29,323 nt of DNA from an uncultured Gardnerella sp. Its GTDB lineage: Bacteria > Actinomycetota > Actinomycetes > Actinomycetales > Bifidobacteriaceae. The notes beneath the pieces are model-generated. The model was not told the DNA's origin. It saw only the letters and a program-made list of their open reading frames with translations, and did no database searches. Numbering within the stretch: position 1 is the stretch's first letter; every line of letters begins with the position of its first letter. The translations under genes were made by a program, and so were the position numbers. The DNA lies in contig CAMXWX010000010.1 of assembly GCA_947252975.1 (NCBI GenBank), forward strand, positions 1-29,323, in the 5' to 3' direction. This document shows positions 4,131 to 8,306 of the stretch, in pieces.

Positions 4131-4904
4131 TTACACTAAATTTGGCAAAAAGATTGAAGTGCATATTGGTAAAGCAATAATAAGTGCAGAAATAACTAAA
4201 GACAAGAATCCACGCCATCCGAATGGGTATTTGTAATACGAAGACTTGCGTGTACGCAAATAAAAGCCGCGCTCTTCCGCTGCTAGCGCAGAACTATCTG
4301 CTTTACGCACTGAAGAAACCAAAAGAGGCACAATAAGAGGCATCATAAGTTTTAATTTTTTAAATGGATTTTTACTATCGTATTCAACTCCGCGAGCCAT
4401 TTGAGCTTCTGTGATTTGAGACATTTCTTGCGCAAAAATAGGCACAAAACGAACCGCAGTAGTTATAGTAAAAGCATAACAATATGGAATATGCAAATAT
4501 TGGACTACAGCATTTGCAAGATCGTTTAATTTAGTTACTGTTAGCACTGTAACAAGAGGAAAAGCAAAACAGAACAAACGCAAAGAAGCTTTCGCTCCAA
4601 TATCAATACCTCTTAACGTAAACCATAGAAAAATATAGTTCCCACTTTGAGCAATAACAGTTTGTAGCAAAAACATTACGCAAGAAATTATTAGCATAGC
4701 TTTAATAAGGCCAAATAATGTTTTAACAACATGAGTAAAAGCCATGCCAACAAAAATAATAACAGCTAGCGCAATAAGTACAGAATACTGTTTAGCAATA
4801 AATACGCTTATTACAATACTCGCAGCAAGAATTAGCTTCGCAATAGGGTTTGTGCGGTGAAGGAATGTGTTGCCTGATTGATATGTTAATAGTCTCGTTT
4901 TCAT
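4131..4904 (-). CDS. ecfT: ECF transporter T component (transmembrane coupling protein)
   Basis: EcfT is the membrane scaffold that couples the ATPase to the substrate-binding S component. The 257-residue protein has several hydrophobic helices, then the long cytoplasmic coupling-helix region with the two diagnostic Arg motifs: MARG at residues 169-172 and EERG at 210-213. These dock into the ATPase grooves. A last transmembrane helix ends the protein. The start ATG is 26 bp downstream of the ATPase gene, with an AAAGG site further upstream than ideal. Position and order (S, A, T) indicate one transcript. Confidence 0.92.
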   Translation of the reverse strand: MKTRLLTYQSGNTFLHRTNPIAKLILAASIVISVFIAKQYSVLIALAVIIFVGMAFTHVVKTLFGLIKAMLIISCVMFLLQTVIAQSGNYIFLWFTLRGIDIGAKASLRLFCFAFPLVTVLTVTKLNDLANAVVQYLHIPYCYAFTITTAVRFVPIFAQEMSQITEAQMARGVEYDSKNPFKKLKLMMPLIVPLLVSSVRKADSSALAAEERGFYLRTRKSSYYKYPFGWRGFLSLVISALIIALPICTSIFLPNLV

Positions 4905-4930: not shown

Positions 4931-6895
4931 CTAACTATTCTGCTGATTATGCTGCTTATTCTGACTAAGTTTTGCGATTTTACCAAAACGCAACGCTTCA
5001 ACTAATTCTTTTCGCGTATACAATCCATAGCATTGCTTAAAACCGTTAGAAACCAAACCTTGGCAAACAGCACACAATAATGGTGGATATAAAGAAGCAG
5101 CTGAACAGACGTCTAGTTTTTCAAAAACATCATGCGCTGAACCATCAATAATAAGCTTTCCATCATTAATCGTTATAAGTCTAGTTGCATAATCAAGCAC
5201 AACTTCCATATCATGACAAACCATAATCACGCAACAACCGTGAGCTCGCAACTCCTCAACTACTTGCATAATTCTCACGCATTCATGGTAATCAAGCCCA
5301 CAAGTTGGTTCATCGAGAACAAGTATTTTAGGACGCGTTACGACAGTTGCAGCCAATGCCACCATTTGTCTCTGCCCTCTAGAAAGCATGAATGGGCTGT
5401 CAGTAGGATTTAAGTCAAGTTTCTCAATAATTTCCATTGCATGCGTTTTCGCCTGACTAGAATCTTCACCAATTAAAATACAGCTCAACTCTACTTCTTC
5501 AAGAACAGTCTCTTTACATAATTGATGATCAGGATTTTGGAATAATGTCGCAACATATTTTGCTATTTGACTAATTCGCAATGGCTTGGTGTCGATACCG
5601 TCAATTGTCACACTACCTTCAGTAGGTCTTAGTAAACCGTTAATAATTTTTGTAATAGTAGTTTTTCCGGCACCGTTTTTACCAATTAATGCGATCAATT
5701 CACCAGCATAAGCATCAAATGAAATATCTTTTAGAGCCTTGACATCATTTGCATAAGCAAAACTCACATGATCTATTGAAAGGCATGGCTTATCAATATT
5801 ATTAACTGCATTGTTAGCTCTTTTAGAATCTTCTTTATTAAGTTCTAAATCAGCTTCTACATCATACACATCATCGCGATTAGAAAGTTTAAAATAATCA
5901 GAACGCAAAGTTTTAACAATAGTATTTACAGTTTCATCAACGCCAACACTAAGAGGTGATGGATCGCAAATTTGTTCATCTTGCAATTGTTTAAGCAATC
6001 GCGTAGTACGTGGATAATTAATACCTACTTTACGAAGTAACTCTATATCTTTAAGAGCTTCGCAAACAGGAGCATCGAGAACAAGCTCACCTTTAGAAAG
6101 CACTATAAGACGCTTGCAATATTCACTTAATAAAGCTACTTTTTGCTCAATCACTACAATAGTAATACCAAAGTTTTTATTCAAATCACTTAAAACGTCG
6201 AAAATCATACGTGAAGAAACTGGATCCAGCGCACAAGTAGGCTCATCTAAAACCATCACTTTAGGCCTTAAAGCCAAAATAGCAGCTATTGCAACCTTCT
6301 GCTTTTGACCTCCAGATAGCGTATCTAAATCACGATTTCGCAAATTGCTAATACCAACAGTTTCTAGTGCATTTGCTATACGCTCAGGAATTTCATCGTG
6401 CGAAACTCCGAAGTTTTCTAAGCCAAAAAGCAACTCATCTTCAACGTTTGCAGCAACCATTTGCGCATCAATATCTTGAATAACAGAGCCAATTAAACAA
6501 GCAATATTAGTGAGCTCAAGAGTAGTAGTGTCATGACCAGCAATTCTGACAGTTCCGAAAAACTTTCCCGAATAATGGTGAGGAATTGCTCCAGAAAAAA
6601 GTGAAGCAAGAGTTGTTTTACCAGACCCAGAAGGTCCAATAATTCCAACGAATTCACCTTGATGAATACTAAGGTTTACTTTATGAAGAGCATAGTTGCA
6701 ATTATCTTCATTGTCTTTTTTATCTTTATTTGCAACACTTTCATCACTATGAGTATCGTAACGAAAAGATACATTGCTTAATTCAAGCAATGGCACTTCT
6801 TTTACTGATTCATCACTTTTTTTCATAGGCTCTTTACACGGTTCGGCAGAATCAACTAAATGATTATCTGCAACATATTTTTCTTGCTGAGACAT
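4931..6895 (-). CDS. ecfA: ECF transporter ATPase, two ABC domains fused (654 aa)
   Basis: Energises the ECF importer. Two complete nucleotide-binding domains are fused in one chain. Domain 1 has Walker A GPSGSGKTT (about 87-95), signature LSGGQKQ (193-199) and Walker B VMVLDEPT (213-220). Domain 2 has GKNGAGKTT (405-413), the typical EcfA Q-loop LFQNPDHQL, signature LSRGQRQ (504-510) and ILVLDEPT (524-531). Most ECF systems use two separate ATPase genes, but fused forms are common in actinobacteria. The frame opens at 6970, but only the ATG at 6895 (MSQQEKY) has a good site (AGGA, five-base spacing), so I use it. Residues 30-65 are acidic and poorly conserved. It lies 223 bp after the S component with a hairpin between them. 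Confidence 0.93.
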   Translation of the reverse strand: MSQQEKYVADNHLVDSAEPCKEPMKKSDESVKEVPLLELSNVSFRYDTHSDESVANKDKKDNEDNCNYALHKVNLSIHQGEFVGIIGPSGSGKTTLASLFSGAIPHHYSGKFFGTVRIAGHDTTTLELTNIACLIGSVIQDIDAQMVAANVEDELLFGLENFGVSHDEIPERIANALETVGISNLRNRDLDTLSGGQKQKVAIAAILALRPKVMVLDEPTCALDPVSSRMIFDVLSDLNKNFGITIVVIEQKVALLSEYCKRLIVLSKGELVLDAPVCEALKDIELLRKVGINYPRTTRLLKQLQDEQICDPSPLSVGVDETVNTIVKTLRSDYFKLSNRDDVYDVEADLELNKEDSKRANNAVNNIDKPCLSIDHVSFAYANDVKALKDISFDAYAGELIALIGKNGAGKTTITKIINGLLRPTEGSVTIDGIDTKPLRISQIAKYVATLFQNPDHQLCKETVLEEVELSCILIGEDSSQAKTHAMEIIEKLDLNPTDSPFMLSRGQRQMVALAATVVTRPKILVLDEPTCGLDYHECVRIMQVVEELRAHGCCVIMVCHDMEVVLDYATRLITINDGKLIIDGSAHDVFEKLDVCSAASLYPPLLCAVCQGLVSNGFKQCYGLYTRKELVEALRFGKIAKLSQNKQHNQQNS

Positions 6896-6953
6896 AACAT
6901 TCCTAACTCTAACACACCGAGCAAACGCTAAAAAATTAATAACACAAAAACAC

Positions 6954-6989
6954 AAGTTGACATCAATCATATTAGACTGATGCCAACTT
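6954..6989 (-). terminator. Hairpin between S-component gene and ecfA
   Basis: On the minus strand AAGTTGGCATC pairs with GATGTCAACTT (one G-U), with a 14-nt loop, followed by GTGTTTTTGTG. The shape suits a weak terminator or processing site. It would lower ecfA-ecfT expression relative to the S component. The 223-bp gap has no gene. Confidence 0.4.
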
Positions 6990-7831: not shown

Positions 7832-7860
7832 TTGGTTATTTTTGAAATTTAAGGCTTGTA

Positions 7861-7897
7861 TACAAAAAGACCCCCGGGGCTTACCCGGAGGTCTTTT
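7861..7897 (-). terminator. Attenuator terminator of the tryptophan leader
   Basis: On the minus strand AAAAGACCTCCGGG pairs with CCCGGGGGTCTTTT through a 5-nt loop. That is 14 bp with a single G-U, and it runs into a T tract. The mismatch is C-A in plus-strand orientation but G-U in the minus-strand RNA, so the structure is built for the minus strand. It sits 21 bp after the leader peptide stop and about 115 bp before trpP, the layout of an amino-acid attenuator. A candidate antiterminator pairs GTCTTcTT, just after the Trp codons, with AAAAGAC of the left arm; this is tentative. Confidence 0.88.
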
Positions 7898-7918
7898 ACA
7901 AGCTTTTATACGCAGCTT

Positions 7919-8023
7919 CTAAAACTTCAGAGTAAACTCACGCCAAAAAGAAGACTGCCACCACCACATACGTGCAGCATTAAGAGTATCGAAAGATTCA
8001 GCATTCATGTTCATGTTAAGCAT
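7919..8023 (-). CDS. Tryptophan leader peptide (34 aa, WWW)
   Basis: A short reading frame with the strongest ribosome-binding site in the region: AAGGAGG eight bases before the ATG. It encodes 34 residues. Residues 19-28 read MWWWQSSFWR, so four of 34 codons are Trp, three of them consecutive at 7958-7966. The stop TAG is followed 21 bp later by a strong terminator and then by the TrpP-like gene. By analogy with trpL, ribosomes stalling at the Trp codons when charged tRNA-Trp is scarce would prevent terminator formation and switch on the transporter. The peptide itself probably has no other function. It is too short to be found by standard gene callers. Confidence 0.88.
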   Translation of the reverse strand: MLNMNMNAESFDTLNAARMWWWQSSFWREFTLKF

Positions 8024-8306
8024 GATGTCTGCCTCCTTAACTCATTAATACTAACTGTGGTTCACGCACAAACCCCAACCGAAGTATTCGATATTTGTTT
8101 GTGTTGGAAATGATGCTAACACCATAAAAGTACAAATGCAAACATTTTTTCAAAAATATTCTCCTAATGAAATAATTATTACAAAAATATTTATAAATTT
8201 ATTATTCGTAAATCCTTATTTTGCAAAGAAAATCTCGTTTTAAATAAAGAAACTCCCGAAATAATGTAAAAGAAAAAATTTACTTAAATAAATGCAACAC
8301 GCTGAT
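8024..8306. other. Intergenic region upstream of the tryptophan leader
   Basis: 283 bp between the leader peptide and the end of the hexosaminidase gene. It is very AT-rich around 8140-8280. It must hold the promoter for the tryptophan operon, but I see no pair of -35 and -10 boxes good enough to call, and no strong terminator for the upstream gene. Confidence 0.5.

What the first reader, a model, noticed from the sequence alone, without database searches (positions are those of the whole stretch)
7861..8040. Ribosome-mediated tryptophan attenuator controlling an ECF transporter
A leader ORF with a strong SD encodes MWWWQSSFWR within 34 codons. A 14-bp GC-rich terminator with T tract follows 21 bp later, then a TrpP-like S component. 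All parts of an amino-acid attenuator are present, in the right order and on the right strand. B. subtilis TrpP is controlled by TRAP, and many firmicute relatives by T-boxes. A peptide-based attenuator on an ECF importer is unusual and fixes the likely substrate as tryptophan.
Basis: partly seen in the sequence, partly recalled or inferred. Interest (0 to 1): 0.8.

Follow-up and report, generated by a model that had tools for sequence, protein, structure and literature searches.

The report
Tryptophan-codon attenuator before a tryptophan importer
Just ahead of a probable tryptophan-uptake operon in a Gardnerella-like bacterium lies a tiny gene rich in tryptophan codons followed by a transcription stop signal, very probably a switch that turns uptake on when the cell runs short of tryptophan.

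Summary
In detail: on the minus strand a 34-codon ORF (8023..7919, SD AAGGAGG) encodes MLNMNMNAESFDTLNAARMWWWQSSFWREFTLKF. A 14-bp terminator with a T tract starts 21 nt after its stop; then come a TrpP-like S component, a double EcfA and EcfT. The same leader and terminator precede the gene in all 12 genomes that hold it, of 189 family genomes searched. Conserved in the 13 sequences are a promoter-like site, four Trp codons, the terminator (three core pairs changed on both sides) and an RNA segment that stays nearly unchanged past a frameshift. trpA is in 0 of these 12 genomes, trpB in 4. In the one trpB upstream region I could read, a second Trp leader (MNTRFWRSWRS) has three overlapping complementary segments in textbook order. 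No TRAP gene or T-box was found. Best reading: a ribosome-mediated tryptophan attenuator. Weak point: I found no antiterminator that captures the terminator's GC arm; the only conserved 2:3 pairing competes with its A-tract, and modelling leaves the core intact in every ribosome state. 'All parts present' is therefore too strong. A new member of a known kind, on an unusual target.

The parts
8113..8141 (-). Probable promoter of the leader transcript (TTGCAT 8141-8136, 17-nt spacer, TAGCAT 8118-8113)
   Evidence: Mean pairwise identity 0.93 among 13 loci against 0.32 just upstream; the consensus scan did not list it
8067..8103 (-). 5' UTR stem-loop (CACAAAC...GUUUGUG), role unknown
   Evidence: Folds with a closed outer stem in 12 of 13; in L004 the outer pairs are lost
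8032..8038 (-). Shine-Dalgarno AAGGAGG of the leader ORF
   Evidence: GGAGG in 13 of 13
7919..8023 (-). Leader ORF, 34 codons, MLNMNMNAESFDTLNAARMWWWQSSFWREFTLKF
   Evidence: 29-35 codons in the 13 sequences
7958..7966 (-). Three tandem Trp codons (a fourth at 7945-7943)
   Evidence: All four present in 13 of 13; codons 19-27 mean pairwise identity 0.98
7949..7958 (-). Segment 1, GCAG-n-CUUCU, begins in the third Trp codon
   Evidence: Pairs with segment 2; nine pairs identical in 13 of 13
7912..7920 (-). Segment 2, AGAAGCUGC, overlaps the stop codon
   Evidence: Invariant in 13 of 13, also in the four sequences where one base fewer puts it after a new stop
7894..7904 (-). Segment 3, AGCUU-G-UAAAA: candidate partner of segment 2 (2:3) and, with its As, the start of the terminator 5' arm
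   Evidence: GCUU invariant in 13 of 13 inside a variable linker; helix length within chance in 12 of 13
7864..7897 (-). Intrinsic terminator: A-tract, GC core 7893..7869, T5 tract
   Evidence: two-sided changes at 3 of 9 core pairs
7854..7859 (-). ACAAGC, 3' arm of a lower stem that lies past the T tract and pairs with segment 3
   Evidence: Duplex calculation; 6 or more pairs in 8 of 9 main-clade sequences, 5 in L004
7119..7745 (-). S component (TrpP-like), 208 aa
   Evidence: Pfam TrpP 25.4 bits, E 1.4e-5, below the 27.2 cut-off; fold matches in the PDB led by ECF S components, E 0.07-0.5
4931..6970 (-). Fused double ECF ATPase (EcfA1-EcfA2), 679-aa ORF
   Evidence: TIGR04521 and TIGR04520 over cut-off
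4131..4904 (-). EcfT, 257 aa
   Evidence: Pfam CbiQ 92.5 bits; a CbiQ match lies within about 4 kb of the S gene in 12 of 12 relatives

Best explanation
This is a ribosome-mediated transcription attenuator that senses charged tRNA-Trp and controls a tryptophan importer of the ECF type. Transcription starts at a conserved promoter-like site about 85 nt upstream of the leader ORF. When tryptophan is plentiful the ribosome runs through the Trp codons to the stop codon, covers segment 2, and RNA polymerase stops at the terminator 21 nt further on. When tryptophan is short the ribosome stalls at Trp20-22 or Trp27, which breaks the 1:2 hairpin; segment 2 (AGAAGCU, with UUUUA) then pairs with segment 3 (RGCUU, with UARAA), takes the A-tract away from the terminator and lowers termination, so the importer genes are read. 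Shown from sequence: promoter-like site, SD, leader, Trp codons, terminator, operon, conservation. Inferred: transcription start, tRNA charging as the signal, stalling, and the 2:3 step, which is the least secure.
For: Leader and terminator precede the S gene in the window and in all 12 genomes found to hold it. All four Trp codons are kept in 13 of 13, although codons 1-18 vary (identity 0.78 against 0.98 for codons 19-27). Two-sided changes keep the terminator paired. In four sequences one base fewer changes the peptide end to RSLL, yet the RNA from there to segment 2 is almost unchanged (identity 0.94 over all 13), so the RNA itself seems selected. trpA 0 of 12, trpB 4 of 12: import matters. 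In L042, upstream of trpB, a leader MNTRFWRSWRS is followed by overlapping 1:2, 2:3 and 3:4 complementary segments. TRAP family 0 of 12; no T-box in Rfam. Among weak Rfam matches on this strand His_leader has the lowest E (22.1 bits, gathering 49, E 0.23), a hint only. TrpP orthologues in G009 and G010 pass the Pfam cut-off.
Against: I found nothing in the freed RNA that pairs with the GC arm of the terminator. With a ribosome at any of three Trp codons the core still forms with probability 1.00 in 13 of 13; only the A:U extension drops (0.78-0.96 with the ribosome at the stop, 0.51-0.86 when stalled at Trp20). The AAGCU part of 2:3 is only 0.10 in the window at Trp20 and 0.02-0.99 across the set at Trp22. 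The 1:2 region is no more stable than shuffles (z -0.02 to -1.13 in 7 of 7 tested). The 2:3 helix is no longer than in shuffled linkers in 12 of 13. Segments 1 and 2 are invariant, so covariation cannot test them. In L042 the folds do not tell ribosome states apart: with the whole terminator 3:4 wins in 4 of 4 states, and with the 5' arm alone 2:3 forms in 3 of 3, also without a ribosome. No expression data.
Confidence: 0.78

Rival explanations
1. The leader ORF is translated and Trp-sensitive, but regulation is not by competing hairpins: a stalled ribosome alters mRNA decay, ribosome-polymerase coupling or downstream translation, and the terminator only sets a fixed level of read-through.
For: No structure that excludes the GC core of the terminator was found; a lower stem past the T tract, kept in 8 of 9 main-clade sequences, could form only in read-through RNA.
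Against: Segments 1 and 2, and GCUU of segment 3, are invariant, the last within a variable linker; the trpB leader read in L042 has ordinary overlapping segments.
Confidence: 0.13
2. The nascent peptide itself binds free tryptophan in the ribosome and arrests it (TnaC-like, recalled), rather than Trp codons sensing charged tRNA.
For: The MWWWQ(S/T)S(F/L)W core is strictly conserved.
Against: The end of the peptide, where such arrest would occur, is replaced (REFTLKF to RSLL) in four of 13 sequences; an importer should be induced by shortage, not by excess.
Confidence: 0.04
3. TRAP or a T-box controls the gene, as TRAP does trpP of B. subtilis.
For: Control of B. subtilis trpP by TRAP (titles of papers in a reference list).
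Against: TRAP family 0 of 12 genomes while B. subtilis rings as control; no chain of spaced (G/U)AG triplets longer than 2 in the three leaders checked; no T-box in Rfam at gathering or relaxed threshold.
Confidence: 0.01
4. A small unrelated Trp-rich gene with an ordinary terminator that happens to lie before the importer; the importer has its own promoter.
For: The spacer after the terminator is 103-146 nt, enough for a promoter.
Against: Leader and S gene occur together in 12 of 12 genomes; the spacer is the least conserved stretch downstream of the promoter-like site (0.55 against 0.93 for that site). The consensus scan listed no promoter in the spacer on this strand, but it also missed the site before the leader, so this says little.
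Confidence: 0.04

Closest known systems
trp operon attenuators of Corynebacterium and Streptomyces (TrpL leaders)
   Same: Actinobacteria; leader peptide with two or three UGG codons; GC-rich terminator with poly-U (PMC1262725, parts 1-2 of 3 read).
   Different: They control biosynthesis (or trpS) and have complementary triples (gGCC-rGCy-GGCC) in antiterminator and terminator; here the target is an importer and the triple (AAGCU-AGCUU-AAGC) lies at and beyond the base of the stem, not in its GC core. B. longum was among that study's genomes; in the parts read no trp attenuator is reported for it.
E. coli trp attenuator (his leader: recalled)
   Same: Order of leader ORF, regulatory codons, 1:2 hairpin, terminator.
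   Different: In E. coli trp 2:3 and 3:4 have similar stabilities (passage of PMC1183508); here 3:4 is far more stable and 2:3 takes only the A-tract.
B. subtilis trpP (yhaG), under TRAP
   Same: Same Pfam family, PF17099, of the importer (B. subtilis rings as control).
   Different: There TRAP blocks ribosome binding (title in a reference list); here no TRAP gene and a Trp leader peptide.
C. glutamicum TrpP (Cg3357) beside the trp operon
   Same: Actinobacterial gene of the same name next to a Trp leader.
   Different: Leaderless transcript with a start apart from that of trpL, transport role in doubt (passages of PMC11995493); PF17099 does not ring in C. glutamicum (control list).

Membership tests
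Ribosome-mediated (trp-type) transcription attenuator | Short leader ORF with its own SD in the 5' transcript | tested here: met
   13 of 13
Ribosome-mediated (trp-type) transcription attenuator | Run of codons for the amino acid handled by the downstream genes | tested here: met
   Four Trp codons in 13 of 13; downstream gene TrpP-like, substrate not proved
Ribosome-mediated (trp-type) transcription attenuator | Intrinsic terminator between leader and gene | tested here: met
Ribosome-mediated (trp-type) transcription attenuator | 1:2 hairpin that the stalled ribosome would disrupt | tested here: inconclusive
   Present with nine invariant pairs in 13 of 13, but stability is within shuffles in 7 of 7 tested
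Ribosome-mediated (trp-type) transcription attenuator | Antiterminator (2:3) that excludes the terminator | tested here: inconclusive
   2:3 pairs kept in 13 of 13 apart from one mismatch each in L003 and L025, but they exclude only the A-tract pairs; core P 1.00 in all states
Ribosome-mediated (trp-type) transcription attenuator | Read-through rises when tRNA-Trp charging falls | not testable with these tools
   No expression data
TrpP family (PF17099), ECF S component | Score over the Pfam gathering cut-off | tested here: inconclusive
   Window protein 25.4 against 27.2 bits; orthologues in G009 and G010 pass, G002 does not; among 115 relatives many carry PF17099 precomputed and many do not
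TrpP family (PF17099), ECF S component | S-component fold with EcfA and EcfT alongside | tested here: met
   Model pLDDT 79; 13 of the top 14 PDB matches are described as ThiT, RibU, biotin or other ECF S components, the other as 'a transporter' (4huq chain S); E only 0.07-0.5; EcfA and EcfT adjacent
T-box | Match to the Rfam T-box model | tested here: not met
TRAP regulation | TRAP gene in the genome | tested here: not met
   0 of 12 relatives; the window's own genome is not held

The most novel reading that the evidence does not exclude
Gardnerella-type bacteria, which lack trpA, run a small tryptophan-scavenging regulon (ECF importer in all 12 genomes, trpB for indole salvage in 4) by leader-peptide attenuators without TRAP or T-box. 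In the importer's leader the switch works by removing only the A-tract from the terminator, a graded control in place of the usual all-or-none antiterminator.
Probability: 0.2. Interest if true: 0.6.

Novelty: new member of a known kind. Interest (0 to 1): 0.42.

Why it matters
If right, it supports tryptophan as the substrate of this ECF importer, gives a natural read-out of tryptophan shortage in these bacteria, and extends leader-peptide attenuation from biosynthesis to uptake by an ECF transporter. It also offers a case in which the terminator core is not masked, so the role of the A-tract in termination can be tested directly.

Tried and rejected
T-box and TRAP: rejected. Frameshift into an open frame that would carry the ribosome over the terminator: rejected; the first stop in each of the three frames lies before the terminator core in 12 of 13 sequences, and in L037 one frame runs to +79, inside the 5' arm. 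Read-through of the leader stop into a frame open across the terminator: possible only in the window and its near-twin L001, not in the other 11. Pairing of the leader SD (GGAGG) with CCUCC of the terminator: considered by eye, not tested. A wider search for Trp leaders in 112 genus genomes used too loose a pattern (111 of 112 hit, and the reversed-pattern control hits often) and tells nothing. The 15-mer hit in G027 lies inside a long reading frame that looks like coaD (label recalled), a chance match; the S-protein hit in G066 (E 3.7e-4, 29%, one stop inside) was set aside. each hit 8 of 151 genomes, sharing seven. The structure-pair count failed on length and was replaced by my own count.

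Full report
What is there. On the minus strand the window carries, in order, a promoter-like site (TTGCAT, 17 nt, TAGCAT; 8141..8113), a 5' stem-loop (8103..8067), an SD AAGGAGG (8038-8032), a 34-codon ORF (8023..7919) with three tandem Trp codons and a fourth seven codons after the first of them, a terminator (7897..7864) and, 118 nt after it, the start of a 208-aa protein, followed by a fused double ECF ATPase and an EcfT protein. None of 400 simulated windows held an SD with an in-frame WWW leader, and the feature is conserved, so chance is out.

Conservation. A search of named genomes gave ten loci, L001-L010, labelled Gardnerella or Bifidobacteriaceae. The 189 genomes held of the family were then searched with a homologue (P0107, 58% identical to the window protein): 12 have a match at E 1e-8 or better, the same 12 as in the genus search of 112 with the window protein. 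These are the genomes of L001-L010 plus two unnamed ones, G139 and G188. Each of the 12 has the leader and terminator before the gene. With the window that makes 13 sequences; L001 is nearly the same as the window (99% protein identity), so they are not 13 independent cases. The peptide core MWWWQ(S/T)S(F/L)W is in 13 of 13. Mean pairwise identity is 0.32 upstream of the promoter-like site, 0.93 in it, 0.64 in the 5' UTR, 0.83 from SD to ATG, 0.78 in codons 1-18, 0.98 in codons 19-27, 0.94 from there to the end of segment 2, 0.75 in the linker, 0.82 in the terminator, 0.55 in the spacer and 0.85 at the SD of the S gene.

Selection on RNA. In four sequences (L009, L010, L025, L037) one base fewer is present after the fourth Trp codon. 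The peptide then ends in RSLL instead of REFTLKF or similar, and the stop comes nine bases earlier. The RNA that follows, down to AGAAGCUGC, is nearly unchanged. The terminator keeps its pairs through changes on both sides at three of nine core pairs (C-G to U-A and G-C to A-U in L009 and L010, the second also in L025 and L037; G-C to A-U at another pair in L007).

Segments and the weak point. AGAAGCUGC (segment 2, overlapping the stop codon) pairs with GCAGnCUUCU (segment 1, starting in the third Trp codon); all nine pairs are identical in 13 of 13, so covariation cannot test them, and the stability of this region is within shuffles (z -0.02 to -1.13; seven of the 13 sequences tested). Segment 2 can also pair with RGCUU in the linker, and UUUUA beside it with UARAA (one mismatched pair in L003 and in L025). 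GCUU is invariant in the linker. But as a bare helix it is no longer than in shuffled linkers (single-base shuffles) in 12 of 13; L004 alone, with 12 pairs, exceeds all 2000. I modelled five states (no ribosome; stalled at Trp20, Trp22 or Trp27; at the stop), letting the ribosome hide everything up to 15 nt from the start of its A-site codon. Without a ribosome 1:2 has probability 0.75-0.99. With the ribosome at the stop, 2:3 is 0. The AAGCU part of 2:3 ranges from 0.10 (the window) to 1.00 at Trp20, from 0.02 to 0.99 at Trp22 (0.52 in the window) and from 0.14 to 1.00 at Trp27 (0.97 in the window). In every state and sequence the terminator core has probability 1.00; only the A:U extension falls. 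So I find no classical antiterminator that seizes the GC arm. Either A-tract loss is enough to weaken a terminator with only five or six U, or another step is missing. A lower stem beyond the T tract (segment 3 with ACAAGC) has 6 or more pairs in 8 of 9 main-clade sequences; it can form only in read-through RNA.

Function of the operon. The S protein scores 25.4 bits to Pfam TrpP, slightly below the 27.2 cut-off; NCBIfam has no match. In a search of 396 genomes of the order, three have a match, two of them over the cut-off (G009, G010), and all three are among the 12. Of 115 homologues found, many carry PF17099 and one is named tryptophan transporter. A predicted model (pLDDT 79) matches ECF S components of known structure first (13 of the top 14 so described), with match probability 0.93-1.00 but E-values of only 0.07-0.5. 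A CbiQ/EcfT match lies within about 4 kb of the S gene in 12 of 12 relatives, and each genome has 3 to 7 CbiQ matches. trpA is in 0 of 12 genomes and trpB in 4 of 12; both ring in all 14 control genomes (trpB over its cut-off in 13). The relatives therefore should not make tryptophan from scratch, though four may convert indole.

A second leader. Upstream of trpB in L042 (genome G003), an SD-led ORF encodes MNTRFWRSWRS, and three complementary pairs exist: CUGGCGUAG with CUAUGCCGG (-12.3 kcal/mol), UAUGCCGGAUUCA with UGAAUGGCAUA (-9.3), and GCUGAAUGGCA with UGCCAUCCAGC (-13.8) before six T. The segments overlap as in a textbook attenuator, which makes the same logic likelier for the importer. 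Two limits: it was read in one genome only (the matching stretch in L041 reads N), and the folds do not tell ribosome states apart: with the whole terminator 3:4 wins in all four states, and with the 5' arm alone 2:3 forms in all three, also without a ribosome.

Other controls. No TRAP gene (0 of 12), no T-box. Below threshold, His_leader and Phe_leader are among the matches listed on this strand (E 0.23 and 4), alongside chance matches such as RNAI.

Prior work. Seliverstov et al. 2005 (PMC1262725; parts 1 and 2 of 3 read) predicted trp attenuators in Corynebacterium and Streptomyces, one before trpS in Streptomyces, and a Cys leader before cbs in B. longum; in these parts no Trp transporter. 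A T-box survey (PMC2494555; passages) does not hold the words trpP or yhaG in its main text. C. glutamicum trpP is leaderless and has its own start, apart from trpL (PMC11995493; passages). Nine searches for a Trp leader before a tryptophan transporter or in Gardnerella/Bifidobacterium showed no such report as far as titles and abstract starts tell; three of the lists were cut (10 of 23, 15 of 23, 15 of 28), and the library holds only open-licence PMC papers. Beyond these I saw passages of PMC4347634 and PMC1183508.

Verdict. A real, conserved Trp leader with terminator before a TrpP-like ECF importer; very probably a ribosome-mediated attenuator (0.78). It is a new member of a known kind on an unusual target, with an open question about how stalling weakens so strong a terminator.

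Noticed in passing
L042:1201-1368 (genome G003): A second Trp leader (MNTRFWRSWRS) with overlapping complementary segments and a terminator upstream of a trpB gene in a genome without trpA.
   Followed up: partly
window 8103-8067 and homologous 5' UTRs: A 5' stem-loop, CACAAAC...GUUUGUG, is kept in 12 of 13 with a changing inner helix between promoter and leader; role unknown.
   Followed up: partly
G006, G008, G010, G139, G188: A second S component follows the first in tandem in 5 of 12 genomes.
   Followed up: no
L009, L010, L025, L037: One base fewer after the fourth Trp codon gives a shorter peptide while the RNA segments stay.
   Followed up: yes
Bifidobacteriaceae: The TrpP-like S component was found in 12 of 189 family genomes, which suggests gain by transfer or wide loss; P0107 and P0112-P0115 are more distant relatives of unknown host.
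   Followed up: no
window 6991-6952 (-): A 17-pair terminator-like site lies between the S gene and the ATPase gene and overlaps the start of the longest ATPase ORF; it may tune expression within the operon, and the true ATPase start may lie further downstream.
   Followed up: no
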